A stretch of 64,000 nt of DNA, taken from Polychytrium aggregatum. Its lineage: Eukaryota; Chytridiomycota; Chytridiomycetes; Polychytriales. A program made the translations under genes and the position numbers. Below the pieces are notes generated by a model, which ran no database searches, had not been told where the DNA came from, and was given only the letters and a program-made list of their open reading frames with translations. Position 1 is the stretch's first letter. Every line of letters starts with the position of its first letter. Below, one piece after another: positions 3,001 through 63,689 of the stretch. Location of the stretch: contig NW_026516358.1 of assembly GCF_025602895.1 (NCBI RefSeq), forward strand, positions 27,037-91,036, read 5' to 3'.

Positions 3001-5181
3001 CGACCTGCTTCGGACCTACAGCGTACCTTTCAAGCCCACAACTCTTGGAAACATAAGGGCACTGCTGTCAACGACTACTTTGCCCCGGTATTTGTTCACG
3101 TACGGGTCTGTCAAATGAGCAAATTTGGGTTGAAGCTCTCGAACAAACTGGACATTGACGAAATAGCCGATTAGCTTCTCCACTACCGATACTGAGCTCA
3201 AGTTGGTTTTTACATTCAATCTCAGTTTGTCTCGTGATCCTGGTAACCACGTACCTCGATCTCGATCGGACGCTTTGCCAGTGCCCACTCGCGGAGACGG
3301 ACGACCGCGGTCGGTGGAAGCCAGATATAGTGACTTGTATGCCAAAGCACTTTTTTCGTGTTGATGTTGGATGGATCTGCCCCGGTCTTTTCAACCTTTT
3401 CTGCTGGTGGAAGCTCCGAGAGGGTTGCTCCATTGTGGCCAAGACTACTGGCCGAGTTTTTGGGCTTAGGAATGTAAATTGGCTGCGGCTGGATCGCGTT
3501 TGCCTCCGCTAGATCATTCAGAAGACAATATTATGAAAGGCAGAAAATAGCACAGTGAGTCAATATCGCTCGGCAGCTTGTCTGAATCTACCACAGAGGG
3601 AGAATACAACACCGATTCAACTAGACGCAAACTGATGCTCTCGTCAGCTGCAACTGGCAACGAACATCTTTTGTACTTTGGAATAGCACTCTGTAATACA
3701 TGTGCTCCGCCGAAGCTCTCTTACGAAATGGCCAGCATACCTGTGGAGCTTGCATCCGAAACGGTCAATGTGCCTCCGCCTACGTTGATGAGACGCTCTG
3801 GAGAGCTTTCTGCCGGGACGACAAAGTTGAGAGAGTACTGAAAAATGTCTTTGAGCCCCCGTGTATTGCACAGCAGGTTGGTTAGACTCTGTTTGTATGC
3901 GGATCGGTCCGTCCTTCTCGGTAGCTTGCGCGCACATAAAATGATAACTGAGTCTGCGACTCCTCCCTCGTCGCTAGACCAGAGTATTTTATCATGTTGG
4001 CGTCCCTTTCGCGTGCATTCTGCACTCACTGGAGTTTAGATCTTTCTCCGATCCTTCTTTGACGTTCCACTCGTCCGGGACGGGCAGCATGTCTTCGATT
4101 TTTAAGCAAATGCAGTTGGACGTATCTTGAATGTCGGGCCGAATCAAATGGTCGTCAAAGGTGATTTCGACTTCGATACGAGGAGAAATGTCCTCTTCCG
4201 GCGACTTTGGGACCGGAAGAAGTTTGGGATTAGCATAGCTGACGGAGAGCGTCTCGGAGACCGATAATGGGGGTGGCTCTGGAGACACGGTTTCCACACT
4301 TGGGTCGCGTGAAATGAAATTGAGGAGTTTGCCCATGAACGACATTTCGGTCACGCCGAGAATGGCGGTTTTCTCCTTGGGAAGCGACTCAATTACTGTC
4401 ACGACGAGCTTCTTGTTGCCGATCGTGTCGATGAAGCTCTGCATATGCAAGGGCCATAGATGTTAAGAACGCAGCTTCCTGGCAATGCTTTCTGTAGCCA
4501 TGCAGCAACACCAACCTCGTCAATATGGAACTTTTGTTCGATCAAGAAAGAATATTCTGGATGAGGATTGTCAATAACCACTTGAGACTGTGAAGGTTTT
4601 GTCCCGTTGCGAGCGTTAGTTTCCAAAGACCATATGATCCCAACATTCTGAATCGGAGACTCCGTTTCGCGCGCAGGCGGTACAAGCGTTCCCTCTCACA
4701 AAACAGCTGCGAGGTCTGCACAACAGGCAGCCATCATGACAATCGGAAAGAACGCACATCTTTGTAATCGAAATCAGCAAACTGGACCCGAACAAAGCTG
4801 TTGACGTGTTCGCCCTTTACTCCCCGGATATTTCTGGCTGAGATCACTCTGATCAGTTCACCGGCGCGTGGTTAAGGATTATCGTGTGCCTCCGTGATCT
4901 TGCCCTGGACATCCACCATCCACCATGCCCAAAGCCCCAGACTTTCGTCGGCGACGTGTGAAAAGGATATCCATCGTGACCTCGCGAGGAGTGCTTGGTG
5001 TGTTATCTGGATCGGCGGTGCCGCTGACTTGGGAAGCAAAAAAAGTCGAAGGTTTTCGCGTCTGCGCCATGGCGAGCTGTGCAGCTTGAGACCCTGCATT
5101 TGCACTCGATGCCGCCGGTCCCGAGCCTTTGGCGGTGCCAGGCTTGGAGGTGGTTGGTGATCTCTTGAGCGACTCGTTCAT
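1..5181 (-). CDS. CFAP70: CFAP70 (TTC18), ciliary C2/TPR protein, 3' end outside window
   Basis: Axonemal protein with an N-terminal C2-like domain and C-terminal TPR repeats, known from the central apparatus of motile cilia. Exons read leftward. The likely start is the ATG at 5181 (MNESLKRSPTTSKPG), followed by a Ser/Pro-rich leader. A C2-like stretch lies near 4745-4865 (RVQFADFDYKDV) and a segment with VVTVIESLPKEKTAILG lies at about 4390. The family-typical RSGVYFSFKERLKAAVVEVVRE lies near 2110-2180 and EIYVYLNDQMHIS near 1930-1970. TPR exons run from about 1300 to 1; LIYLRLGHLYLRK and NGWLGVGKACLALSEY align with the human C-terminus. The frame is still open at base 1 (EANVLNNRDSEVWAY), so roughly the last 30 residues are missing. 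At least ten short introns are implied. Identity is secure from several colinear matches; exon limits are approximate. Confidence 0.85.
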
Positions 5182-16008: not shown

Positions 16009-16058
16009 GATTACGGTTATAACAAGCGAGCCAACCCTCCCACAGCACGTCCGGATTA

Positions 16059-16084
16059 CAGGCAATCCAATAAAAAACGGGACA
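16059..16084 (+). repeat. left terminal inverted repeat
   Basis: 26 bp beginning CAGGCAATCC and ending AAAAAACGGGACA, directly preceded by TA. Near-copies lie at the left ends of derivatives 38655 (minus) and 43010 (minus). The outer end of 50973 reads CAGTCTATCC and then the same inner block. Confidence 0.85.
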
Positions 16085-16142
16085 CCCGGATTTTTGACCA
16101 TTCATCGAATATTTTGTTACCCAAAACCATCGCGCGCTGGCC

Positions 16143-17075
16143 ATGACCATTCGCCACACATCCGACTTTCGCACCGCCGCATTGCGATGCTACGCCCTCA
16201 TCCATAGCCTGCGTAAGGTCGCCACCATATTCAGTGTATCCAAGAGCACCATCCATCGATGGCACCGAGGATGCAAGCTGGATGACCCATCCCGGGTCCC
16301 AGCTCGCAGATCCACTTTCTTCGAGCAGGCATGTCCAGTCATTCGCACCCTGATTGAACAGGACCCGTTCCAGACTGGTCCTGTGTTGCGATGCAAGCTC
16401 GAGTCCATCCTCCAGAGGAAAGTATCACTCTCACTCTGCCACACTGCCATCCACCGAGCAGGTCTCTCACACAAGAGGGCAACACACCTCTACAAGTCCA
16501 AGCGACTGGATGAGCGAGTGGCACAGTTCAGGGACCAGGCCCGCTCCATTGACCCACGACGATTCGTTTTTGTCGACGAGACAGGGATCAGGAGATCCAT
16601 TTTCCCTCTTTACGGATACTCACCGAAGGGTGCTCCGCTTCGCCAGCGCAATCACATGAAGCACAAGTCTGTCTCGGCTGCATTTGCCATCAACCACTCT
16701 GGTGTGCTGCATCGCATGTACATCCCCACATCATTCAAGACACACTCGATGGTCGAGTTCTTTGAGCGAGCGAGCTTCCCAGACGACTCTGTGATTGTGA
16801 TGGACAATGTCAGCATGCACAAGACAATGCCTGTCCTGGACTGCATCGAGCGCCGAGGATGGTCAGTGATCTTCACCCCACCTGCCTCGCCCGACTTCAA
16901 TCCCATCGAGAACTTCTTTGGGATTGTGAAGCATCAGTACAGGAAGGCAGCAGCGCTGAACGCCTCCGAGGGGTTCAAGATCGGGATGGTGACCCTGTTT
17001 GAGTCTGCCGTTCGGAGGGTGCTTCCAGATGTCTTCCCACGGCTGATTGAGCGAGCGATGCGCTTCTGGGGTTGA
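16143..17075 (+). CDS. Tc1/mariner-type DD34E transposase
   Basis: 310 residues, uninterrupted from ATG 16143 to TGA 17073-17075. A helix-turn-helix lies at about residues 17-42 (IHSLRKVATIFSVSKSTIHR), followed by a linker and a second DNA-binding region. The catalytic core has D145 in FVFVDETGI, D221 in VIVMDNVSMHK and E256 in PDFNPIENFFG. There are 34 residues between the second D and the E, the DD34E signature of Tc1-type enzymes in the IS630/Tc1/mariner superfamily. All three catalytic residues are present, so activity is plausible. The ORF starts 59 bases inside the left inverted repeat. The Fanzor gene follows 252 bases downstream on the same strand. Confidence 0.92.
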   Translation: MTIRHTSDFRTAALRCYALIHSLRKVATIFSVSKSTIHRWHRGCKLDDPSRVPARRSTFFEQACPVIRTLIEQDPFQTGPVLRCKLESILQRKVSLSLCHTAIHRAGLSHKRATHLYKSKRLDERVAQFRDQARSIDPRRFVFVDETGIRRSIFPLYGYSPKGAPLRQRNHMKHKSVSAAFAINHSGVLHRMYIPTSFKTHSMVEFFERASFPDDSVIVMDNVSMHKTMPVLDCIERRGWSVIFTPPASPDFNPIENFFGIVKHQYRKAAALNASEGFKIGMVTLFESAVRRVLPDVFPRLIERAMRFWG

Positions 17076-17327
17076 GTTCCCTCCAATCAAGCCGCCGTTC
17101 TCACGTTCACATCCCTGGCTTGAGCCTCTCGGCGATTTTTGAACAGGGTCACTTCCCCAACCAGCCCGCAAAGACGGGCTCCTGCTCTCGGGTATAAATG
17201 CCACACCTTCGTCCTGCTGCTTTCTTCCCTCATCTCGCCTTGATCTGATCATCGCGCTATTGTACGATAAAAAAAAGTCTCTGCTCTGACCAGTACCACT
17301 GGCAGGCATCCAGCATCCTCTGCCCCC
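17076..17327 (+). promoter_or_regulatory. Fanzor promoter region with TATA box
   Basis: 252 non-coding bases between transposase stop and Fanzor start. TATAAA lies at 17193-17198, about 130 bases before the Fanzor ATG. A C/T-rich stretch follows, the usual fungal initiator context. This suggests that Fanzor is transcribed independently of the transposase. Confidence 0.55.
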
Positions 17328-19700
17328 ATGCCTCCGAAGCGCAAGGGTACCGGTGATGGCCAGCCTCGGCCACCCAGGCCCAAGAAAGCCAAGTCACAGT
17401 CGGAGCCTGTCTCTGGTTCGTATTCTGATCCCACGCATGCTTGTTTCTCTGTTGCTCCGTCGCTCACCACCACTGCTTCTGCAGATCCAATGGATGTCGA
17501 TCCCACCGAGCCTGGTCCATCTACTTCCTCGAGTACCGGCAAGCGATGTCGCCAGTGCGATGGCACCGATCACGAACGCTGCAACACCAGCAAGTGTCCC
17601 AAATACCGGCCCCTCAAGAGCTCTGTCGTCCCACTCGTGGATGGAAGGTCATCCGCCCCTCAGTTCAGCTGCTTCAAGCAGACGATGGATAGCTGTTGTC
17701 TCAATCCCGCTCTCCGCGACAAGATCCAGGCCACCGTCGAGGCCATGACCCAGATCCAGTTCGAGGCATCCAGGCTGCTCAACCTGCATATCCTCCGGTG
17801 CATCGAGCAGGATCTTCCCGTCCCCGTCATCTCCAAGTCCACCCCTGCTTTCATCCGCCAATGCTTCACGATTGTCCAGGCCGATGCCCTCTCCCCGACC
17901 GGGGACAACGAGAAATACAACGAGCATCTGGTCGCTTCCTTTCGCGACTACCAGACCACTCGGCACGCAGACCTGCCTCCGGCCCCTCGTCTGCCTGATG
18001 GTGCTCACAGTCAGCTTCTCACACTGGCTGTCAACGCCTATGCCACCAACTGCACCACCCACCTCGACCTGGCCTACTGGCGACTCCTTCGCCGCTTCTG
18101 CGCTGCCGTCTTCCCTGCCAACAAGCACAAGCACGAAGCCATCGAGGCCTGTCTCGAGCTCTTCGAGAAACCAGGGCAGACTCCACCCAAGGCCGATCTC
18201 GAGTTCCTCTATCCAGACTTTGGCCACGTCCTGGACGAGTTTCGGTACAGCAGCGACCAGGACCGCTTCCGGGCCCTCCATCGCCTCTCACACCATGTGG
18301 GAATCCTCGCCCGGGACAAGATGGTCGACAATGTCCACAAGTGGATCGACTGTGACATGCCCGCCCTCCGAGTCACCGAGCTGCAGCGCCAGGCCAAGCT
18401 GGACGAGCTCACTACCCAAGGCATTCCCTCCGACGACAAGCGATTCACCACGGCCAAGTCTGAGCTCGGCACCACCAAGGCCAAGATCAACAAGCTGGCA
18501 TCCAGGATCAACTGGGCACTCAAGCAGCTCACTCTTGACACTCCTCCGGCCGTGTGCACGATGGTCCCTCTGTGCACAGCCAAGGCCAAGTATGTCAAGA
18601 TCGACACCGTCACTCTTTGGCAACTCCTGGGTCCAAAGAAGCGCCTTGGACTCACCAGGGACAAGCTCAAGGAAGAAGGTGATGACGGTGTCAACAACCA
18701 GGATCGTCTCTGGCGCAGTTGCTTCAAGCTGCGTAGTTCCCTCTTCCAAGAGCGGGACGTGAACAAGAAACTGTTCAACTACGAGATCAGTACCGATGGA
18801 ATTGGATGCACCATCGGTCTCGTCAAGTTTCTGCCTCGAACCGATCACACCGAGACCATCGAGCCTCCTCCGACTGCCGAGCAGCGTATCCAGACCCACA
18901 TCGGCGACCCAGACCCCAACAGGACCACTTGGATTGGCATCGATCCTGGAGTCGGCTCCATCTTCACGGCGGTCATCCAAGCACCGAGCCACCAAGACGA
19001 GGTGGTCTCGTTCTCCAATGGTCACTATCAGCAAATGTGTGGCCATACGTCCAATACTGAGTGGCACAACACCATGAAGTATCGACTCAGCATCGAGACC
19101 TAGATGTCGACCACCCCCTCGCCCAAGGTGTCGTCCTCGGAGGCCTTCAAGATCCATCTCGCCCATGTCCTGCGACCGGAGCTGCGAGTGCAGCTCGACT
19201 TCCACCTTGGCAAGAAGGCCCGTCACCATCGCTTCACGGGCCACAGGAGACGCCAAGTGGCCGTCGACAGGATGTGTAAGTCGGTCCTGAAGCACGCCCC
19301 GATACGGACCGATGTGGTGATCGCCTTTGGCAATGCGTCATGGCGTCAAGGCAAGGGCTATGCATCCAGCCCTCGGAGGCAGCGGTTTGCTCGGTACTTT
19401 GAGCAATTCGAGCACCACCGACGCCGTCCCAATCACCATCATGGAAGCGTCAAGGTGGCCTCGACGAACGAGTTCAACACCTCGCAAGTGTGCTCCAAGT
19501 GCCTGGAGCCAGTTCGGTTGGAAGGACTCGATGCGCCCAGTGTTGCGAATTCCCACTTTGTCAGGAGCTGCAAGAATCCCAGCTGCCGGACAGTGTGGAA
19601 TCGCGACGTCAATGCGGCGCGCAACATGATCACAGTATGCAGGTCGATTGTGGAGACCGGAGAGCGACCGGTGGTCTTCACTCGGAGGCTGCCAAAGTGA
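17328..19700 (+). CDS. Fanzor (eukaryotic TnpB-like RNA-guided nuclease), one in-frame TAG
   Basis: A single frame of 790 codons from ATG 17328 to TGA 19698-19700, broken only by TAG at 19101-19103 (codon 592). The N-terminus is basic (PPKRKG, PRPKKAK), a likely nuclear localisation signal, with a zinc-knuckle-like C74-x2-C77-x4-H82-x2-C85. A long helical region follows. RuvC-I is WIGIDPGVGSIF with D539. Past the stop come VVIAFGNASW, a candidate catalytic Glu715 in TNEFNTSQVC, the TnpB-type zinc finger C722/C725/C748/C753, and RuvC-III D760 in WNRDVNAARNM. The family is RNA-guided DNA nucleases related to IS605/IS607 TnpB; Fanzor genes carried by Tc1/mariner elements have been described. The TAG separates RuvC-I from the rest, so without readthrough the nuclease would be dead. 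The surrounding frame shows no other damage, so the break is recent, is read through, or is a base-call error. Confidence 0.88.
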
Positions 19701-19797
19701 TCTGTTTTATTTCTTGTGGCTTTGCTTGACGCAAGCACAGCACATACTACTGTTCATGGAAACGGCTATATTGTCCCGTTTTTTTCTGAATAAAGTG
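19701..19797 (+). ncRNA. candidate Fanzor guide-RNA scaffold region (3' end of element)
   Basis: The 97 bases between the Fanzor stop and the right end of the element. In TnpB and Fanzor systems the guide RNA scaffold overlaps or follows the nuclease 3' end and runs to the element boundary. This is inferred from position. The sequence evidence is that derivatives at 42711-43010, 38224-38655 and 44490-44755 keep recognisable versions of this segment together with the last Fanzor codons. I have not folded it. Confidence 0.4.
19772..19797 (-). repeat. right terminal inverted repeat
   Basis: 26 bp; read on the minus strand it begins CACTTTATTC and ends AAAAAACGGGACA, and it is followed outward by TA at 19798-19799. 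The 42711 derivative has the same outer block (CACTTTA after TA). Confidence 0.85.
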
Positions 19798-19981
19798 TAA
19801 GCTGCAGTTTGATACGCATTAGGCAAATTCTTGGGGATTGTTTGCAAGTGGCTCGGGGGCGACCATCGGCTCATGTGGTGATGTCGCTTTTGTCCCATAT
19901 CCCAAGGCCTCTCGGGTGCTCAGAGCACCTCCGAAGCGCCGAAATGAGACAGTGGACGCCGGGAATCGGTAGCGTGCAGTA

Positions 19982-38139: not shown

Positions 38140-38223
38140 GCGTGGGAACAGCTCCACTCATTGTCTGGGTAGGGCGGAGCGAAGTCTGGAAGTGCGAGTA
38201 TGCAGGATCCGGAAATATATTAC

Positions 38224-38655
38224 GCTTTAGACGTGAGCATACGAGACACCACACCCGCTTCCATGGACATGTAGTATGCGATAGCTTGCATCTGAAAAGG
38301 CCATTGCCAAAGTGATCATGCTGCGCGCCGCATTGATATCGCAATTCCACACTGTCCAGCGGCTGGGATTCGTACAGCTCCTGGCAAAGTGAGAATGGGC
38401 GACATTGGACGCATCAAATCCCCTCAGCCGAGAGGGCTCCAGGCACTTGGAACACACCTGCAATGTGTTGAACTCGTTGGTCGAGACTAACTTGCGCAGA
38501 CTGTGGATGACGCTATAGTATCGTAACGGGGCAGTGCAAAAGTCGAGTGCGTCGCGGATGGTCGGTCGTGGCCAGCGCGCATTGGTCTCGGGCGACAAAA
38601 AACAACCTATCAGTGCTCATAATCCGGAGTGACCCATTTTTTACCGGATCGCCTG
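38224..38655 (-). mobile_element. 432-bp internally deleted transposase-Fanzor derivative
   Basis: Both ends match the full element. The left end (minus strand, 38655) begins CAGGCGATCC and then AAAAAATGGG. The right end carries TAAAGCG next to TA at 38222-38223. Inside, the start of the transposase (ALDFCTAPLRYYSVIHSLRK) runs directly into the Fanzor C-terminus (STNEFNTLQVCSKCLEP ... NAARSM). The joint lies where the parents share AAGGTsGCC (16215-16223 and 19452-19460). The frame stays open for 123 codons but the transposase ATG is now ACG, the last zinc-finger Cys is gone and the tail is shortened. It lies 84 bases after PPP4R4. Confidence 0.85.
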
Positions 38656-53559: not shown

Positions 53560-56014
53560 TCAAATCGTTTCAGGAAAGGGAAGACCGATCACAGGCCGAT
53601 ACTCCACTGCGCCGATCATGTGATCGTCGTGAGTGCCATCCAATTTGCAGCGAGCGACCCACAAGGACATTGGGAAACGAGGATCGCACGTCTGAGCTCG
53701 ATATCCGTGGGATCATCAGGGAGAGAGCACACCAGATAATGAACCGCACCCTGCCGACTGGCCCACTGCCAGCGATGGTCGCCAAAGTGCAGAACAACAG
53801 AAACCTACCAAGGGGCCATCCAGCATCAGCCCTGGTCGGATCGAGGGCACACAGGGGCCCGAAATCCGACGCCTGGAACGAGAACGGCGATGCCTGAGCA
53901 GAATGCTCGCCCAGACCCCCGAGTACGACACGGAAGAGCTGGACGACCTGCGTCGTCAGCTTCGGTCCACGAGAAAGGCCATCACCCAGCTCAAGCGCAA
54001 GAACGGCATACGGTCATGGAAGGAATCCATGGCCACCATGGACACCCAGAAATGCCTCGAGATGACCAAGACCATCGGAGCAATGCGCACGAGGAAGGAG
54101 AGAGAGGGATCCCACCTCTTTGACAACTCGGACCCGACTCTCGAGAATCTCGTGGTGCCCTTTGGCAAGGTATCCTCTGCCTCGCAGGACAGCGGGACAG
54201 AGTACGACAGATGTATAACCCCGCCACCCCTGAGCACGGAGGCGACCCTCCTGCCGCCCGACAAGCGGCTCCCAGAAGTATCGCTGGAGCACATCCAAGA
54301 GACCATCGAGAAGGCACCATGTCGCAAGGCAGCGGGATCCGACAAGATCAAGAGCGAAATGCTCATACGAGTCGCACCAGTGATAGCCGAGTGGCTCCGC
54401 CTGATCATCATGGCGGCGCTCAAGGTCAGTGTGGTGCCAAACGAATGGAACAGCGTGCTGATCCACCCAGTGTACAAGCAGAAGGGATCGACCCTGGACC
54501 CGGCCATGTATCGCCCTATCGGTCTCACTCAGACTTGCAGGAAGATCGTGGAAAGGATCATGCTCCCCTTCCTGGCAGAACAGGCAGGAGACATGGACGT
54601 CGCCCAAGGCGGATTCCGAGCCAGACGAGGAACCCTTGACCAGATCGTCGCCCTGGACACCCTGATCAAGCACCACAAGACGAACGGTGAGGAGTACTCT
54701 CTGATCTTCCTCGACATCAAAGCCGCCTATGACACAGTATGGCGCGAGAGACTTTGGACCAAGCTCAAGCAGCGAAGAATGAACGGCATCGCCCTCGGCT
54801 TCCTCAAAGCCATGTTTGACCGGGTATCCATCCAAATGGTCAGCAAGGGCAGAAGATCCAAGCCAGCATGGCTCCAGAAAGGACTGATCCAGGGATCGGT
54901 GCTGAGCCCACTCATGTTCAGCGCCTTCATCGACGATCTGCCAGGACCGAATGGTGACCAGGACAAGAGAAGCAGCATCCAACATGGCCAAGATGGGCCT
55001 GACCCTTGGGAACCTCACGGCTAAGACCCTAACGATTGCATACCGCACGTTCCTGCGGCCGATGATGGAATACGGCCTCGCCCTCGACGCCATCCCAAAG
55101 AACGAACAGAAGCGGCTCCACCGGACACAAACATTCTGCCTGAACTTGCTTTTCACACCGCTCGCACGACTTCACATGGTGCACTGCACCTCAATTGCGG
55201 ATTACCCACGATGGCGACAAGAGCAAAGGTCCTCGGCATCCAATGCCGAGCACGATGGGAAGACGTCGCCACACACGACGACAAGATGATCGCCCTCATC
55301 ACCCGCTTTATCCGATCCACGGCGATGAAGGACCAGCCATACCTTGGCAAGCCCTTCTACGAAAGCATCCAATGGAACCTGACCTGCACCCGCAAGGAGA
55401 AGAACGCCACGTTCTCGATGTCCATGGCCTTTGCCAAGGACGACGACTCGACCACGGATCGCACACAGATCCTGTCGGTCAAAACACTCATGCTGACCCA
55501 CGATGCCCACACATCGTTCAAGCGAGGACAGCAGCTGACGGCTGCGTGCACACCAAGAACAAAGATGTCGGGAGTCTGGACCCAACTTGGACCAAGCATC
55601 CCACGCAGACTACACGTAGTAATGGTGTGGTGGAGACTGGGGGCATTCCCCGGGCACCCACACGGCAAGTACCGCCTCTGTAAAAAGTGCAAATGCAACG
55701 GCGAAGGCCGAATCGAGCTGAGCAGATCCCACGCACAGACGTGTGTGGATGAGGAAGACACCTTGGACGCCCTGGTACAGGGCTATAAGGATATTTTCAC
55801 TGGATGGACCGAGCCCGAGACCGAAGGTGTCGGGCCTATTGATAAGTTGTTGGATATGCTGGGAGAGGTTGGCAAGCTGGAAAACGAAGAACCCATCGTG
55901 GGACAGGCCTTCAATGGTCTGTGGACTGATCTGGAACAGATCTTCCATACCCTGATGTGGAGACTCGCTGGATGGCAAGCCAGGCCCGGCGACATTCCTG
56001 AGTGGGACATTTAA
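53560..56014 (+). mobile_element. Degenerate non-LTR (LINE) retrotransposon
   Basis: A 5'-truncated LINE. Near 53607-53720 one frame reads DHVIVVSAIQFAASDPQGHW, resembling the end of an APE-type endonuclease domain. The reverse-transcriptase frame follows (53903), then a shifted frame to TAA at 56012-56014. No poly(A) tail or target duplication is visible. Confidence 0.75.
53903..56014 (+). pseudogene. LINE reverse transcriptase, catalytic box deleted and frameshifted
   Basis: The frame from 53903 to 55024 carries RT motifs: NSVLIHPVYKQKGS, YRPIGLTQTCRKIVERIM, AQGGFRARRGTLDQI, FLDIKAAYDTVWRERLW, KGLIQGSVLSPLMFSAFIDD. Immediately afterwards, where the catalytic FADD box should come, the sequence jumps to a thumb-like part in another frame (LTIAYRTFLRPMMEYGLALD, from about 55020). 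Roughly 100 residues are missing, including the catalytic aspartates. A third frame from 55211 carries the C-terminal domain with a CCHC-like finger CKKCKCNGEGRIEL...H..TC (about 55678-55743). It is inactive. Confidence 0.8.
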
Positions 56015-58850: not shown

Positions 58851-61800
58851 TTAAGAAGGCTTCCTGCGAGGAGCCCTGCGTGTGCTCTTTATTTGGGGCT
58901 CCTCGAGGTGTTTACCGTATTTACTCAGCTCCTCGGGTGCATGGGACAAGTCCTCCAGTGTTTGCCATGTGTTGCCCGAGTGTGGGTAACCAACCCACTT
59001 GACATAAAACCGAAGTGACCCATCAGCCACTTTCTTGTGCCTCACGATCCTTTCGACTTCATATTCTTGAGTATAGTATTGTCCGAGGTCGTCTTCCAGT
59101 GGTGCGTCGTCCGGGACACCTTCGTCGGCGTCGGGGAACTGTGCTGGACTGCGGGTCGTGTGGCGACGCAGCTTGGACACATGGAAGACAGGATGGAGCT
59201 TGCTTCCAGGTGGCAAGTCCAACAGGTAGTTGAGGGGACTGGGTCGGGCCGCTATCTTGAACGGTCCTCGGTACTTGGGCAACAACTTCTTTGACTGGGC
59301 TTCGGGGACCTTGATGTTGTCGGCGTCCAGGTAGACAAGGTCTCCAACTTCAAAGGAGACATCCTGGTGTCGGCGGTCGTAGTACTTCGCCATCACTTGT
59401 TGCGCATCCGTGAGCGCGTCGGCGATCATCTTGTGTCGGACTTGATGATCTTTGACAAAGGCACTTGGTTTGGGAGGCAATCCAGCCGTGGACTCGGTCA
59501 GTGTCAAGGAGGTGGGAACATCAGGCTGGAATCCGTAGAGCGCCTCAAAGGGGCTCAAGCCAGTTGTGCTCGACTTGGCGGTGTTGTATGCAAACTCTGC
59601 ATGACTCAGCTGTATGTCCCAGTCGTCTTGGCTGGTCGAGGCGTATGTCCTCAGGTATTGCTCGAGGGTGCGGATCGTCCGCTCGGACTGTCCATCCGTT
59701 TGTTGGTGGTGCGAGGTTGACATGTTCAGCTTGGTGCCGAGATGGTCGAACAGACTTGTCCAAAACAAGGAGGTGAATCGGGGGTCTCGATCACTGACGA
59801 TGGACTTTGGGAGGCCGTGGTGCTTGAACACATGCTTGAAGAACAGCAGTGCAAGGTCAGGCGCGGAGCATGTCGTCTGGCACGGCACAAAGTGTGCCAT
59901 CTTGCTGAACCTGTCGACAAAGACAGCGATTGCATCGTGGTCCAACTTGGTCGTCGGTAGATGCGTGATGAGATCCATGGACATGCTGGTCCAGGGGCGG
60001 TCGGGAACAGGCAGGGGTTGCAGCAATCCTTGCTCTCGGGTCGTGCGTGACTTGACCATCTTGCAGGTATGGCAGGACTCGATGTACTTCTCGACGGTGC
60101 GCTTCATTCCAGGCCAGTATGCGACTTTGGCCAGTCGGTCGTATGTCTTCTCGACTCCAAAGTGTCCAGCGAGGGGCGAGTCGTGGACCTCTTGGAGCAA
60201 CTTGGTCTTCAACGACGGAATGTCCGGCACACAGACACGGCTGTCCTTCTTCAGGAGGAGCAGGCCATCACGCACTGTGTACTCGGATGATTCGTCGTCC
60301 TTGGGGAGCTTAGACACCTTTCGGAACAGTTCTCCGAACTGTTTGTCGTTGGCGATGTTGTCTCGGACAACATCCAGCATCGTGTTGTCGACACTGACAG
60401 TCGACTCGTACAGTGACGCCAATTGGTAGTCGGGGCGTCGGGACAGTGCGTCAGGCACCACATTGAGTTTGCCTTTCTGGTATACAACCTCGTAGTTGTA
60501 CTCGGCGAGGAACTCCATCCATCGCGCTTGGCGTCGGCTCAGGTTCTTCTTGGTGTCGAGGTAACGCAGTGACTGGTGGTCCGTCACAATCTTGAAGGGC
60601 TTGGCGGTACCGTGGAGGTACACTCGGAACTTCTGCAGCGCGTAGATGATCGCAAGCTGCTCCTTCTCGTGCACGGGATAGTTGATCTCGTGTTGGGACA
60701 GTTTGCGCGACTCGAAGGCAACGGGCCTTCCCTCCTGCATCAAAACAGCTCCCACCGCAAAGTCGGAGGCGTCGGTGTGCACGGAGACATCCGTGTTCGG
60801 GTCGAACACAGCGAGGACAGGAGCGTTCGTCAAGGCGTGCTTGAGGGTCTCGAACGCTTGGCGTTGTGGGTGGTCCCACACGAAGGGGCACTCTTTGCGG
60901 AGTAGGTCTGTGAGTGGACCGGCAGTGCGCGCCAGATCGGGGATGAATCGGCGGTAGTAGTTGACGAGACCGAGAAACGACTGCACGTCAGAGACGCATG
61001 CGAGCGGCGGCCACTCGACCACAGACTTGACCTTGGCGGGGTCGACTTCGATTCCTCTTCCTGAGACAACGTGTCCCAGGAACGGGACTTGATTCTTGAA
61101 GAACTCACACTTGGACAGTTTGGCATACAACTTGTGCTCGCGTAGCTTGGCCAGCACGCGGGCGACATGACCTTCATGGGTCGCTTCATCCTTGCTGTAC
61201 ACAAGGATATCATCCAGGTACACGATGACAGAGTTGTCGAGCTCTTGGCGGAACACATCGTTCATCAGCTGCATGAACGTGGCAGGTGCGTTCGTCAATC
61301 CGAACGGCAGCACTAGGAACTCGTACAGTCCGTAGCGAGTCCTGCAGGCGGTCTTGTGGACATCATCCTCGTGGATGCGGATCTGATGGTAGCCTGAGCG
61401 GAGGTCTATCTTGCTAAAGACCTTTGCTCCACTCAGACGATCCATCAACTCGTCGATCCTGGGCAACGGGTAGGTGTTCTTGATGGTCTGTTTGTTTAGT
61501 GCGCGATAGTCGACGCACATCCTGAGATCACCTTCTTTCTTCTTGACAAAGAGCACTGGTGCACCATACGGTGACTGGCTCGGGCGGATGAACCCATGGG
61601 CGAGGAGGTCATCCAACTGGCGCTTGAGTTCGTCCATCTCCGTCAGCGACAGTTGGTACGTCGGTCTTGACGGAGGCGACGAGCCTGGTTCGATGTCGAT
61701 GCGATGATCGACGGTGCGTTGGGGTGGCAGGCATTGTGGCAACTGGTCGGGGAATACGTCCTTGTACTCGTCGAGCAGCTTGGTCACCACAGGCGGGGGA

Positions 61801-62525
61801 CCGGGACCGGCTTGGTCGGTGTCGTCGACCTCACGCACGACACAGAGGAACGACGTGTCCTTCTTGATCAGCCTCTTGAATTGCATGGCTGAGAGGAGAG
61901 GTGGCATGTTGGGTGAGGCCATGCCCTGCAGGACAATGTCAGGGCCAACACGGACAGTGCGGCCTTTCCAGTCGACGACTGGAGTCGGCTCGGCACGAGC
62001 AAGCCAGCTCATGCCGAGGATGGCATCGAACTTGGTGTCGATCACTTGGAACAACAGGACAGGATGGTACTTGGGATGGAGGGCCACTCGCAGGACCACT
62101 TGGTGTGTGCACTGCTGCACACGATCGTCTGCAAGCGCCACACTCATCGGCGACTTCTTCTTGGTTGCATGTATGTTGAGCTCCTGGAGCAAGCGTCTGC
62201 TGACAAAGTTGCAGCTTGCTCCAGAGTCCACCATCATTCGGACGGTGTGACCTTGGACGGTGGCAGGGAGGTACAGCAGGGACTCTTCATGGTCCTCCTG
62301 CACAGCCTCCTGCACCATGACTTGACTTGGGGGAACGGGCGACACTTGGTCTTGGTTGGCTTCATCACGGCCACTCGGACATTTTGGATAGGGTTCGGCC
62401 ATTGCGGGGGCCTGCGGCGTCAGCACGCCATTGCACACGACGTCCACGGCTTGCGGACACATGTCGGAAGCATCCGACACACACGACTTGACAGGGGTGA
62501 GGGCACAGGCGGTCCTGTCCCTCAA
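58851..62525 (-). CDS. Chromovirus pol polyprotein (protease, RT, RNase H, integrase, chromodomain)
   Basis: About 1,224 residues counted from a TTG at 62525; the frame is open from about 62560 and has no ATG at its head, so it is made by fusion or recoding. An aspartic protease has DSGA at residues 100-103. Reverse transcriptase has [12 protein letters not shown] and YLDD at 436-439. RNase H has HTDASD near 583. The integrase zinc domain is H781, H788, C818, C821. Its catalytic D851 (SMDLI), D912 (SDRD) and E948 (QSERT) have 35 residues between the last two. The C-terminal chromodomain ([30 protein letters not shown]) targets insertion in chromoviruses. It ends RRKPS at TAA 58851-58853. All catalytic residues are present. 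Confidence 0.92.
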
Positions 62526-62745
62526 GGGTTCTTGATTTTCTTTTTGTTTTGGTTTTCAATTTTGGTTTTCTCTTCACGTTCGTGGAGAGGCAGGCGGCTT
62601 GCGCCACCATGCACCTCTCGCACGACGCACAACACTTGGTTTGTTTCTCCTTCGGGGGAGGGGGCGAGGTGAACTTCCTCTGGAGACGCGTGGACTGCAT
62701 TGAGCAATCCACGGCGTTGGTCTCCTACTAGGGCTCCAGAGCCAC

Positions 62746-63567
62746 CTAGTAGGGTCGGCCGTTTCCCGACTTCATGGGGCACTCCTTGGCCTGGTGTCCC
62801 GGTCGGTGACAGAAGAAGCAGGAACCATGGCGGAGGTCCTCCTGCTTCTGTCTGTCCTTGGGGGAGACAGTGGCAGCTTGCTGGAACCGGGAGCGGGGAG
62901 GGCCACGAGCCTCCATGGCGTTGACGTCAACGTCCATGGGCTCAGGCATGGGTCTTGCGGGCGGGGCCGGGCGAGGCGGACGGGCTGGGACGTGATGAGA
63001 CCGATGGCCGCCTGCCAGCTGCGGGTAGAACTGGCGGCCATGGTACTGGACGTTGTCGAGGTTCTCGGCAACGTCCATCATCACGTCCAGGGACTTGCGG
63101 GCATCAGGGTTGCTGGCGATGTACTCTCTGATCTTGGGCTTGAGGCCCTTCTGGAAGAGGTACATCGCATCAGCAGAGCCCAGCTCCTCAATCTGGGAGG
63201 AGAGGTCTTCAAACTCCTCGATGTAGCGGGTCACAGAACCACGCTGCACGAGAGAGTATAGCTTGTCACGGGCAATGAGTTCAGCATTGGGGCTGCCGAA
63301 GCGGCGACGGAGGCGGTCCTTGAAGTCGTCAAACACACCTTCGCTCTGCTCGTCGAACCCTTGGCGGCGGTACCAACGGTACGCCTGGTCCTTTAAGCAG
63401 AGCTTGGCGGCGACGATGTGGTGGGTGGGGGCGACTTGGGCAGCATCGAGGTAGTCCTCGAGTTGCTGCAGCCAGTCCTCCACCGAGGAGGAGCGGCTCT
63501 TCCCAGTAAACACTGGGGCACGGAAGGTCTTGAGGAAGGCTTCCGGAAGTGGGCGGGGGTTGCTCAT
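62746..63567 (-). CDS. Chromovirus gag
   Basis: 273 residues from ATG 63567 (MSNPRPLPEAFLKTFRAPVF) to TAG 62746-62748. A capsid-type retrotransposon gag domain occupies about residues 15-165 (DWLQQLEDYLDAAQV, YRWYRRQGFDE, FGSPNAELIARDKLYSLVQR). A Pro-rich linker and the zinc knuckle C-x2-C-x4-H-x4-C (CFFCHRPGHQAKEC) lie near the end. Pol starts about 190 bases further on in another frame. Confidence 0.9.
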   Translation of the reverse strand: MSNPRPLPEAFLKTFRAPVFTGKSRSSSVEDWLQQLEDYLDAAQVAPTHHIVAAKLCLKDQAYRWYRRQGFDEQSEGVFDDFKDRLRRRFGSPNAELIARDKLYSLVQRGSVTRYIEEFEDLSSQIEELGSADAMYLFQKGLKPKIREYIASNPDARKSLDVMMDVAENLDNVQYHGRQFYPQLAGGHRSHHVPARPPRPAPPARPMPEPMDVDVNAMEARGPPRSRFQQAATVSPKDRQKQEDLRHGSCFFCHRPGHQAKECPMKSGNGRPY

Positions 63568-63689
63568 GGCAGGGGCAGGCTCCAGGGACAGAGAGGAGAG
63601 TCGGTCGGCAAGAGAGGCGGGATCCAGCTTGAGGATCTAGAAAGAGGACAAACAGGACGAAAACAAGACGAGGATTTCCGATGCTACCA

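What the first reader, a model, noticed from the sequence alone, without database searches (positions are those of the whole stretch)
16059..19797. Tc1/mariner element carrying a Fanzor nuclease, with precise ends and TA duplication
Seen: matching 26-bp inverted repeats, TA on both sides, an intact DD34E transposase and a TnpB-type RuvC/zinc-finger protein in the same orientation inside. Known: Fanzor proteins are RNA-guided nucleases and have been catalogued inside several eukaryotic transposon classes, including mariner. Inferred: transposase and nuclease form one mobile unit, the nuclease perhaps acting at donor sites as TnpB does. This copy is almost intact, in a genome with many derivatives, and is a good candidate for a living system.
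Basis: partly seen in the sequence, partly recalled or inferred. Interest (0 to 1): 0.88.

Follow-up and report, generated by a model that had tools for sequence, protein, structure and literature searches.

The report
Jumping gene with RNA-guided DNA cutter

Summary
Window 16059-19797 is one full-length copy of a high-copy TA-flanked Tc1/mariner (IS630-type, DD34E) element that also encodes a Fanzor1-type nuclease. At least 39 long copies share these ends. Genome-wide pattern scans count 246 left-end and 316 right-end places. Two corrections: the inverted repeats are imperfect (19 of 26 bases), and this copy's Fanzor frame is cut by a stop at 19101-19103, although intact copies exist.

The unexpected result is a one-sided scar. 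Where the first base of the left end deviates, it equals the base just after the right-hand duplication in 20 of 21 resolved sites, usually with further microhomology. A scan for mirror-image right-end scars found 0. The base before the left TA is T or A in 48 of 48 sites, with no matching excess on the right, like a nuclease TAM. The short scarred derivatives read keep the right end.

Best reading: the Fanzor, guided by the right flank, cuts unoccupied copies of the site, and repair copies the element in (homing/retention, as for TnpB). Break and repair are well supported; Fanzor as the agent is inferred. Missing control: a Fanzor-less mariner from the same genome.

The parts
16056..16058 (+). 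Left flank TTA: TA target-site duplication preceded by T, the predicted transposon-adjacent motif (TAM) of the nuclease
   Evidence: 48 independent sites have T (43) or A (5) before the left TA; background T 15%, A 34%
16059..16084 (+). Left terminal inverted repeat; its first 1-5 bases carry right-flank-derived scars in other copies
16143..17075 (+). Tc1/mariner (IS630-type) DD34E transposase, 310 aa, intact frame
17328..19700 (+). Fanzor1-type RuvC/zinc-finger nuclease gene (790 aa in intact copies); in this copy interrupted by an in-frame stop at 19101-19103
   Evidence: Cas12f1-like_TNB E=3.9e-10 on the C-terminal piece; TnpB family model E=1.4e-6, below its curated cut-off; DPG, E six residues before CxxC, TDG and RD motifs in 15 of 21 copies
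19701..19799 (+). Predicted guide-RNA scaffold (3' non-coding end, right TIR and right TA)
   Evidence: element positions 3651-3700 and 3726-3739 show no base mismatch among 17 copies, while whole elements differ by about 3.4%; kept in the short derivatives read; fold ends in a stem that includes TIR and TA, z -1.19, not significant by itself
19772..19797 (+). Right terminal inverted repeat; no terminal-base deviant next to TA found
   Evidence: 0 hits; 316 canonical places; last base G in 52 of 52 distinct right ends read
19800..19815 (+). Right flank, predicted guide sequence of this copy (length taken from SpuFz1, 14-17 nt)
   Evidence: inference from PMC10432273 and PMC10711439
42711..43010 (-). 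Short degenerate derivative of the family inside the window (CA at the left TSD place, no scar)
38223..38655 (-). Older, decayed derivative related to the family

Best explanation
A Tc1/mariner element inserts at TA. Its Fanzor1 nuclease binds an RNA made from the right end whose 3' tail is the genomic right flank, so each copy is programmed against its own unoccupied site (T-TA followed by right flank). Cutting that site a short way into the right flank leaves a left-hand 3' end that reads left flank-TA-first bases of right flank. This end invades an occupied copy of the same site and is extended into the element. Usually the few right-flank bases are trimmed away. Where they can pair with the element's first bases they are kept, which leaves the observed scar. 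Net effect: the element is restored to, or homes into, sites where it is missing. Shown here: one mobile unit; purifying selection on both genes; scars confined to the left end, with microhomology; a one-sided T/A-TA left flank; short scarred derivatives that keep the right end. Inferred: that the break is made by Fanzor, that the guide is the right flank, and that the template is an allele or sister copy.
For: Of 24 sites (39 places) with a deviant first left-end base, 21 have a readable right flank, and in 20 the deviant base equals the first base after the right TSD (p 6e-9). Five of these were fetched after the rule had been formed. Matching runs after TA reach 9 nt, below the 16-17 nt at which SpuFz1 cuts the non-target strand (PMC10432273 section 8). 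Beyond the last deviant base the match continues for 41 bases in 17 sites, against 8.2 expected and at most 29 in 100,000 draws. Shuffling flanks among the 24 sites of that test never reached the observed 17. Mirror-image scars at the right end: 0; that scan's anchor is sound, since 50 of 52 distinct right ends read have its T-run and all 52 end in G. All 39 copies found by similarity keep left-end register. Left -1 base is T 43, A 5 of 48, with no complementary A excess on the right (59 of 316, 19%, against 15% background). A sister family has C at left -1 in 4 of 4 sites. The 10 short derivatives read (8 of 264-385 bp, two of 1.1 kb, all picked because they are scarred) keep at least 165 nt of the right end.
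Against: No biochemical, RNA or read-level data. No Fanzor-less mariner from the same genome was tested, so transposase plus host repair is not excluded as the cause. One first-base deviant (C386/C400) and one second-base deviant (C46:659246) do not match their flank. Three first-base deviant sites stayed unresolved. A CGGGCG left-end subfamily (13 places) does not follow its flanks in the four read (C1, C57, C379, C395). In the sister family only the first base matches at most sites, and its own normal left end is not known. Deviants were sought by patterns that fix the register, so only the 39 similarity-found copies speak to register; and one further left end lying next to copy L026 is not in register. 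No empty allele was found, so cutting of one cannot be seen directly. Some matches are one base long (C358, L012). Where both haplotypes were read, both carry the scar, so no scarred/unscarred allele pair was seen.
Confidence: 0.58

Rival explanations
1. One-ended insertion: the transposase joins only the right end to the target; the free left-flank 3' end copies TA and some right flank and then switches to the left end by microhomology. No nuclease is needed.
For: Explains right-flank bases and microhomology at the left end. One left end next to copy L026 is out of register.
Against: Register should be free, but all 39 similarity-found copies, 6 of them scarred, are in register. It also needs the right end always to go first. 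The TAM-like left flank is unexplained.
Confidence: 0.17
2. Gene conversion between occupied and empty alleles started by unspecific breaks, unrelated to Fanzor.
For: Gives in-register chimeras of empty-site and element sequence.
Against: Should mark both ends alike; right-end scars number 0 against 39 left-end first-base deviant places.
Confidence: 0.08
3. Variable target duplication: the transposase sometimes makes a 3-7 bp duplication while the left end loses the same number of bases.
For: Same length, and flank bases copied.
Against: Gives no reason for the match to continue past the replaced bases (41 against 8.2 expected) or for left-only loss.
Confidence: 0.06
4. Assembly or polishing artefact: reads from empty alleles overwrite the left-end bases.
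For: Full-length copies show signs that could be misassembly (allelic bodies differ, two pairs share only one flank).
Against: Would be symmetric. Ten scarred sites read in two contigs show the same scar in both (for C415, C223 and C384). Eight scars are in elements under 400 bp, where the two haplotype pairs compared are base-identical.
Confidence: 0.05
5. The left-flank T/A preference reflects transposase target choice, not a nuclease TAM.
For: The two element ends are not identical, so asymmetric target contacts are possible.
Against: No complementary A excess on the right (59 of 316 places); a related family has C there instead (4 of 4); Spu-1 elements have a conserved left-only CA, and the measured TAM is CATA (PMC10432273 sections 7 and 8).
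Confidence: 0.25

Closest known systems
Fanzor1-bearing Tc1/mariner elements (PGv-1, PUl-1 and others; Bao and Jurka 2013, PMC3627910)
   Same: Mariner transposase plus Fanzor1 between TIRs with TA duplications (passages read)
   Different: [quoted passage not shown] here a high-copy family with intact copies, small derivatives and end scars
Spu-1/SpuFz1 of Spizellomyces punctatus (Saito 2023, PMC10432273)
   Same: Conserved bases beside the left inverted repeat only, agreeing with the TAM; right-end guide RNA; 'ghost' elements without the nuclease (sections 7 and 8 and passages read)
   Different: No transposase was found between the Spu-1 repeats; here it is in the same element. Sequence similarity to SpuFz1 is weak (E 0.31)
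IS200/IS605 TnpB donor-site retention and gene drive
   Same: Guide = right flank, cut of unoccupied site, repair from the occupied copy (PMC11870625 passages; Saito discussion passage)
   Different: Single-strand 'peel and paste' transposase in bacteria; here a eukaryotic DDE cut-and-paste element
KolobokP composite elements with a DDD/E transposase and a His-Me finger homing endonuclease (PMC9587614, search listing only)
   Same: Eukaryotic DDE transposon that carries a homing endonuclease, by its title
   Different: His-Me finger endonuclease, not an RNA-guided RuvC nuclease

Membership tests
Tc1/mariner (IS630-Tc1-mariner) transposon | TA target-site duplication | tested here: met
   39 of 39 copies abut TA or a one-base mutant of it on each side
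Tc1/mariner (IS630-Tc1-mariner) transposon | DD34E/DDxD transposase of the IS630/DDE_3 family | tested here: met
   DDE_3 5.7e-23, IS630 121 bits over cut-off 100, spacing 34
Tc1/mariner (IS630-Tc1-mariner) transposon | Terminal inverted repeats | tested here: met
   19 of 26 bases, perfect inner 13, counted by hand from both ends printed
Fanzor (Fanzor1) | DPG in RuvC-I | tested here: met
   residue 539 in the 790-aa frames (in L013 the script printed an earlier DPG at 527); criterion from PMC10711439 passages
Fanzor (Fanzor1) | Catalytic E six residues before the first CxxC (alternative E) | tested here: met
   E715 in 16 of 21 copies; not found in the longest frame of the other five
Fanzor (Fanzor1) | TDG motif, characteristic of the Fanzor1 WED domain | tested here: met
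   residue 489 in the 790-aa frames; that it lies in the WED domain was not tested, no structure
Fanzor (Fanzor1) | Zinc finger followed by RuvC-III RD | tested here: met
   TNB domain, RD at 759; the second cysteine pair is CxxxxC by eye
Fanzor (Fanzor1) | Clustering in a Fanzor1 tree / REC2 fold | not tested
   no curated tree at hand; structure prediction unavailable; one search scored the 8000 best candidates and none passed 1e-3
Fanzor (Fanzor1) | Right-end RNA running past the TSD | not testable with these tools
   needs small-RNA data; conservation and retention of the region only
RNA-guided retention/homing (TnpB-like) | Cutting of the unoccupied site next to a TAM, guided by the right flank | tested here: inconclusive
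   one-sided scars and TAM-like flank; no direct assay
RNA-guided retention/homing (TnpB-like) | Re-acquisition of the element from an occupied copy | tested here: inconclusive
   scars with microhomology; no empty allele seen

The most novel reading that the evidence does not exclude
Fanzor works in nature as an RNA-guided homing system of a eukaryotic cut-and-paste transposon: it cuts the unoccupied homologous site and drives the element, and small right-end-bearing derivatives with it, into that site. The left-end scars would be the first genomic record of this activity. Because the scars lack the excision footprint usual for mariners, the target would mostly be the never-occupied homologue, a natural super-Mendelian drive, and not only the donor site after excision.
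Probability: 0.45. Interest if true: 0.9.

Novelty: new member of a known kind. Interest (0 to 1): 0.76.

Why it matters
Saito 2023 states that the biological roles of Fanzors remain unknown (passage), and Yoon 2023 says little is known about their function (passage). A high-copy family in which transposase, nuclease, guide region, TAM-like flank and repair scars can all be read makes the retention/homing hypothesis testable by counting. The predictions are exact: scars only at the left end, bases taken from the right flank, none in families that never had a Fanzor. The paper searches made here listed no report of such scars or of Fanzor homing. They cover open-licence PubMed Central papers only; some searches listed 30 of 55, 25 of 289 and 1 of 2 papers; and beyond the four papers opened, in passages or single sections, only titles and abstract starts were seen.

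Tried and rejected
Rejected: random mutation of the left end (20 of 21 match the flank; right-end deviants 0). Rejected: inherited left-end variants choosing matching targets (canonical copies match their flank at CA in only 14 of 67; one search printed 15 of 68, and I removed L113, whose left end is CGGGCG). That 14 of 67 is nevertheless above background (8.1%, p 9e-4) and is not explained by scar formation alone. Considered: CGGGCG left ends as scars; the four with flanks read do not match, so I treat them as an inherited subfamily. The T at position 4 of some left ends (GTC) recurs at several sites and may be inherited too.

Led nowhere: protein homologues of the whole Fanzor (the 8000 best candidates scored, none at 1e-3), Rfam on the window (none at gathering score), SpuFz1 by sequence (E 0.31), structure prediction (not available), empty-site search (none). 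The organism was not identified.

Unresolved side result: haplotype pairs with nearly identical close flanks carry element bodies as different as unrelated copies. In 8 of 10 pairs there are 98-156 differences, in one 40 and in one 1, while two short pairs are identical and one 1.1-kb pair has 4 differences. This is either in-situ replacement (ectopic conversion) or a consensus/assembly artefact in long repeats; I could not decide, and I did not use it as evidence.
Full report
What is there. Window 16059-19797 is a complete copy of a TA-flanked element encoding a 310-aa DD34E transposase and, in the same orientation, a Fanzor1-type nuclease gene (17328-19700) that a stop at 19101-19103 interrupts in this copy. 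The genome that holds the window has 64,678,306 bases in 418 contigs. A DNA search gave 39 copies, the window's included, that reach the right end, the others at about 95-97% identity. All have the same ends. Pattern scans count 246 left ends of the form TANNNGC[A/G]ATCC... and 316 right ends CTGAATAAAGTG-TA (G 80, T 73, C 104, A 59). These are places, not independent insertions: many sites occur twice because two nearly identical haplotypes are assembled (flanks differ by 0-4 bases in 2 kb in the six of eight flank comparisons that align throughout).

Both genes are maintained. Among 17 insertion sites, pN/pS is 0.185 for the transposase and 0.29 for the Fanzor. Of 21 copies read whole, 12 have both frames open at full length. 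The Fanzor carries the published Fanzor marks: DPG, a glutamate six residues before the first CxxC, TDG, and RD after the zinc finger, all four in 15 of 21 copies (criteria from PMC10711439 passages, and for RD from PMC3627910 passages). Sequence similarity to the solved SpuFz1 is weak (E 0.31), and the protein search that scored the 8000 best candidates found no homologue of the whole protein, so placement as Fanzor1 rests on motifs and the TNB domain (E 3.9e-10), not on a tree.

Right end. The last 97 nt after the Fanzor stop are non-coding. Element positions 3651-3700 and 3726-3739 show no base mismatch in 17 copies that otherwise differ by about 3.4%. Eight short derivatives (264-385 bp) and two of 1.1 kb, all chosen because they are scarred, keep 80-205 nt (662 nt in the 1.1-kb ones) of the left end and at least 165 nt of the right end. 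This fits a guide-RNA scaffold kept for action in trans, as suggested for 'ghost' Spu-1 elements (PMC10432273 section 7 and discussion passages). The RNA fold closes with a stem that includes the TIR and TA, as described for Fanzor1 reRNAs, but its energy is not significant (z -1.19).

Left flank. In 48 independent sites the base before the left TA is T 43 times and A 5 times, against 15% and 34% in the background (p 4e-30 for T). After the right TA, A is not in excess (59 of 316 places, 19%, background 15%); T is somewhat rarer there than background (23% against 34%). A TA-specific transposase acting alike on both ends would not do this. In Spu-1 a CA is conserved upstream of the left repeat and the measured TAM is CATA. 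A sister family with a different right end (CTGGATAGACTG and one variant) has C before the left TA in 4 of 4 sites. I therefore predict TAM (T/A)TA here and CTA in the sister family; a transposase cause is not excluded.

The scars. The left end normally reads TA-CAGGCAATCC. Two scans for left ends with a deviant first base (39 places) or deviant second base (21 places) were paired with right ends (the C list shows 100 of 104). One search prints 27 left ends, 25 of them with an intact right end and flank. Merging haplotype duplicates gives 24 first-base sites: 9 single places and 15 pairs. Ten pairs were confirmed by shared left flanks; five (C52/C334 twice, C101/C376, C112/C407, C168:155996/C362:2144) were merged on identical left ends without fetching both. 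Right flanks are readable for 21: 15 match and 1 does not (C386/C400), and 5 of 5 fetched afterwards match (L173-L177). Of these five, L174 belongs to the main family (its right TSD is CA), and the other four to the sister family, whose normal left end I do not know; L173 has TC as right TSD. Total 20 of 21 (p 6e-9 at the commonest background base frequency). Three stayed unresolved (C124:162032, C168:155996, C290:180547). Examples, left end against right flank after the duplication: C102 TAGTCAATCC / TAGTCAATCGGG; L027 GTGGCAATCC / GTGGCAAATCG; C179:411692 AGGGCAATCC / AGGGCAAAAC; C68 AGAGCGATCC / AGAGCACCC; L174 AAGGCAATCC / AAGGCGG. Second-base deviants outside the CGGGCG subfamily with a readable flank: 4 of 5 match at that base (C415/C46:543403, C377, C384/C399, C122; C46:659246 does not); C1:1142524 and C370:113828 stayed unresolved. 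In the shuffle test I used 24 sites, including four CGGGCG ones and both mismatching sites, but not the later L173-L181: 17 match at every deviant position among the first five, against 5.6 on average and at most 14 in 100,000 shuffles. C9/C79 matches at position 1 but not at position 5 and is therefore not among the 17.

Two properties identify the process. First, the match continues past the replaced bases (41 bases in 17 sites against 8.2 expected), so a 3' end was paired there. Second, it is one-sided: a scan for right ends keeping TTTTTTCTGAATAAA but with a non-G last base before TA, which a left-flank-derived scar would have since left flanks end in T or A, found 0. Of 52 distinct right ends read, 50 keep that T-run and all end in G. 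Register is kept in all 39 copies found without regard to the left end; one more left end, next to copy L026, is out of register. A strand reading left flank-TA-right flank can only come from an unoccupied copy of the site, broken within the right flank. An RNA-guided nuclease whose guide is the right flank is the obvious agent; SpuFz1 cuts the non-target strand after bases 16-17, and the longest run seen here is 9.

Homing or donor repair. Mariner excision usually leaves bases from the element end (PMC4561436, start of abstract in listing). The matching scars show a clean TA junction, so the cut site was never occupied or was precisely rejoined. One unresolved left end (L179: TA-TCGTGTA-TCC) contains GTGTA and might be a footprint-bearing case. 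In the probe chosen without regard to a second haplotype, 4 of 8 sites had one and none was empty (40 of 84 candidates scored). With haplotypes this similar, that is weak evidence for drive.

What I could not show. No Fanzor-less mariner of this genome was examined, so the transposase or ordinary repair remains possible. No RNA, reads or biochemistry were available. Long elements at the same site on two haplotypes often differ as much as unrelated copies (8 of 10 pairs with 98-156 differences), and two pairs share only the left flank (L014/L109, L018/L110). This may be real replacement or assembly error and is set aside. The scars do not depend on it: eight are in elements under 400 bp, and ten scarred sites read in two contigs show the same scar in both (with for C415, C223 and C384).

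Verdict. The kind of element is known since 2013 (Mariner with Fanzor1, PMC3627910 passages). New here, as far as the searches made show (open-licence papers and partial listings), is a genome-wide, one-sided repair signature that ties such an element to cutting of its own unoccupied site.

Noticed in passing
L017/L020, window/L022, L010/L023, L009/L105, L011/L106, L013/L108, L014/L109, L018/L110, L021/L107: Same insertion site on two haplotypes, nearly identical close left flanks, but element bodies differing by 40-156 bases; variants are shared among copies and 82% of variant pairs more than 500 bp apart show all four combinations. Ectopic conversion or assembly artefact.
   Followed up: partly
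L068 (C156, 311 bp with both TA) versus L111 (C223, 3.6 kb); L075 (C9, 1.1 kb) versus L112 (C79, 3.6 kb): Same site and same left-end scar, but one haplotype carries a short internal-deletion form, as incomplete repair synthesis could give.
   Followed up: partly
L014/L109 and L018/L110: Same left flank but different right flanks; rearrangement on the right side or misjoin.
   Followed up: no
C1:90461, C124:443089, C379:29691 and ten other places: CGGGCG left-end subfamily, some members with a transposase match ending at residue 262, apparently a transposing variant with its own left end.
   Followed up: partly
L173, L175, L176, L177: Sister family with right end CTGGATAGACTG or close to it, internal remnants of the Fanzor part about 72-83% identical, left flank C-TA, and left-end first bases that match the right flank.
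   Followed up: partly
L026, just right of the element (C13, next to 461900): A second left end directly after the right TA, with 11 instead of 8 bases between TA and CCAATAAAA, i.e. out of register.
   Followed up: no
L179 (C290:180547): Left end TA-TCGTGTA-TCC, which looks like an excision footprint (GTG-TA) copied into the left end; right flank not found.
   Followed up: no
L096/L097 (C124:158440-162110): Right end abuts CAGGCAAT directly instead of TA, i.e. right end joined to left-end-like bases.
   Followed up: no
right flanks of 67 canonical copies: CA (14) and CAG (7) directly after the right TA are commoner than background (8.1% and 2.3%), so flanks resembling the left end seem favoured.
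   Followed up: partly
window 58854-63636 (-) and 53696-55021 (+): Ty3/gypsy-type element with chromodomain (gag and pol frames), and a separate reverse-transcriptase frame.
   Followed up: no
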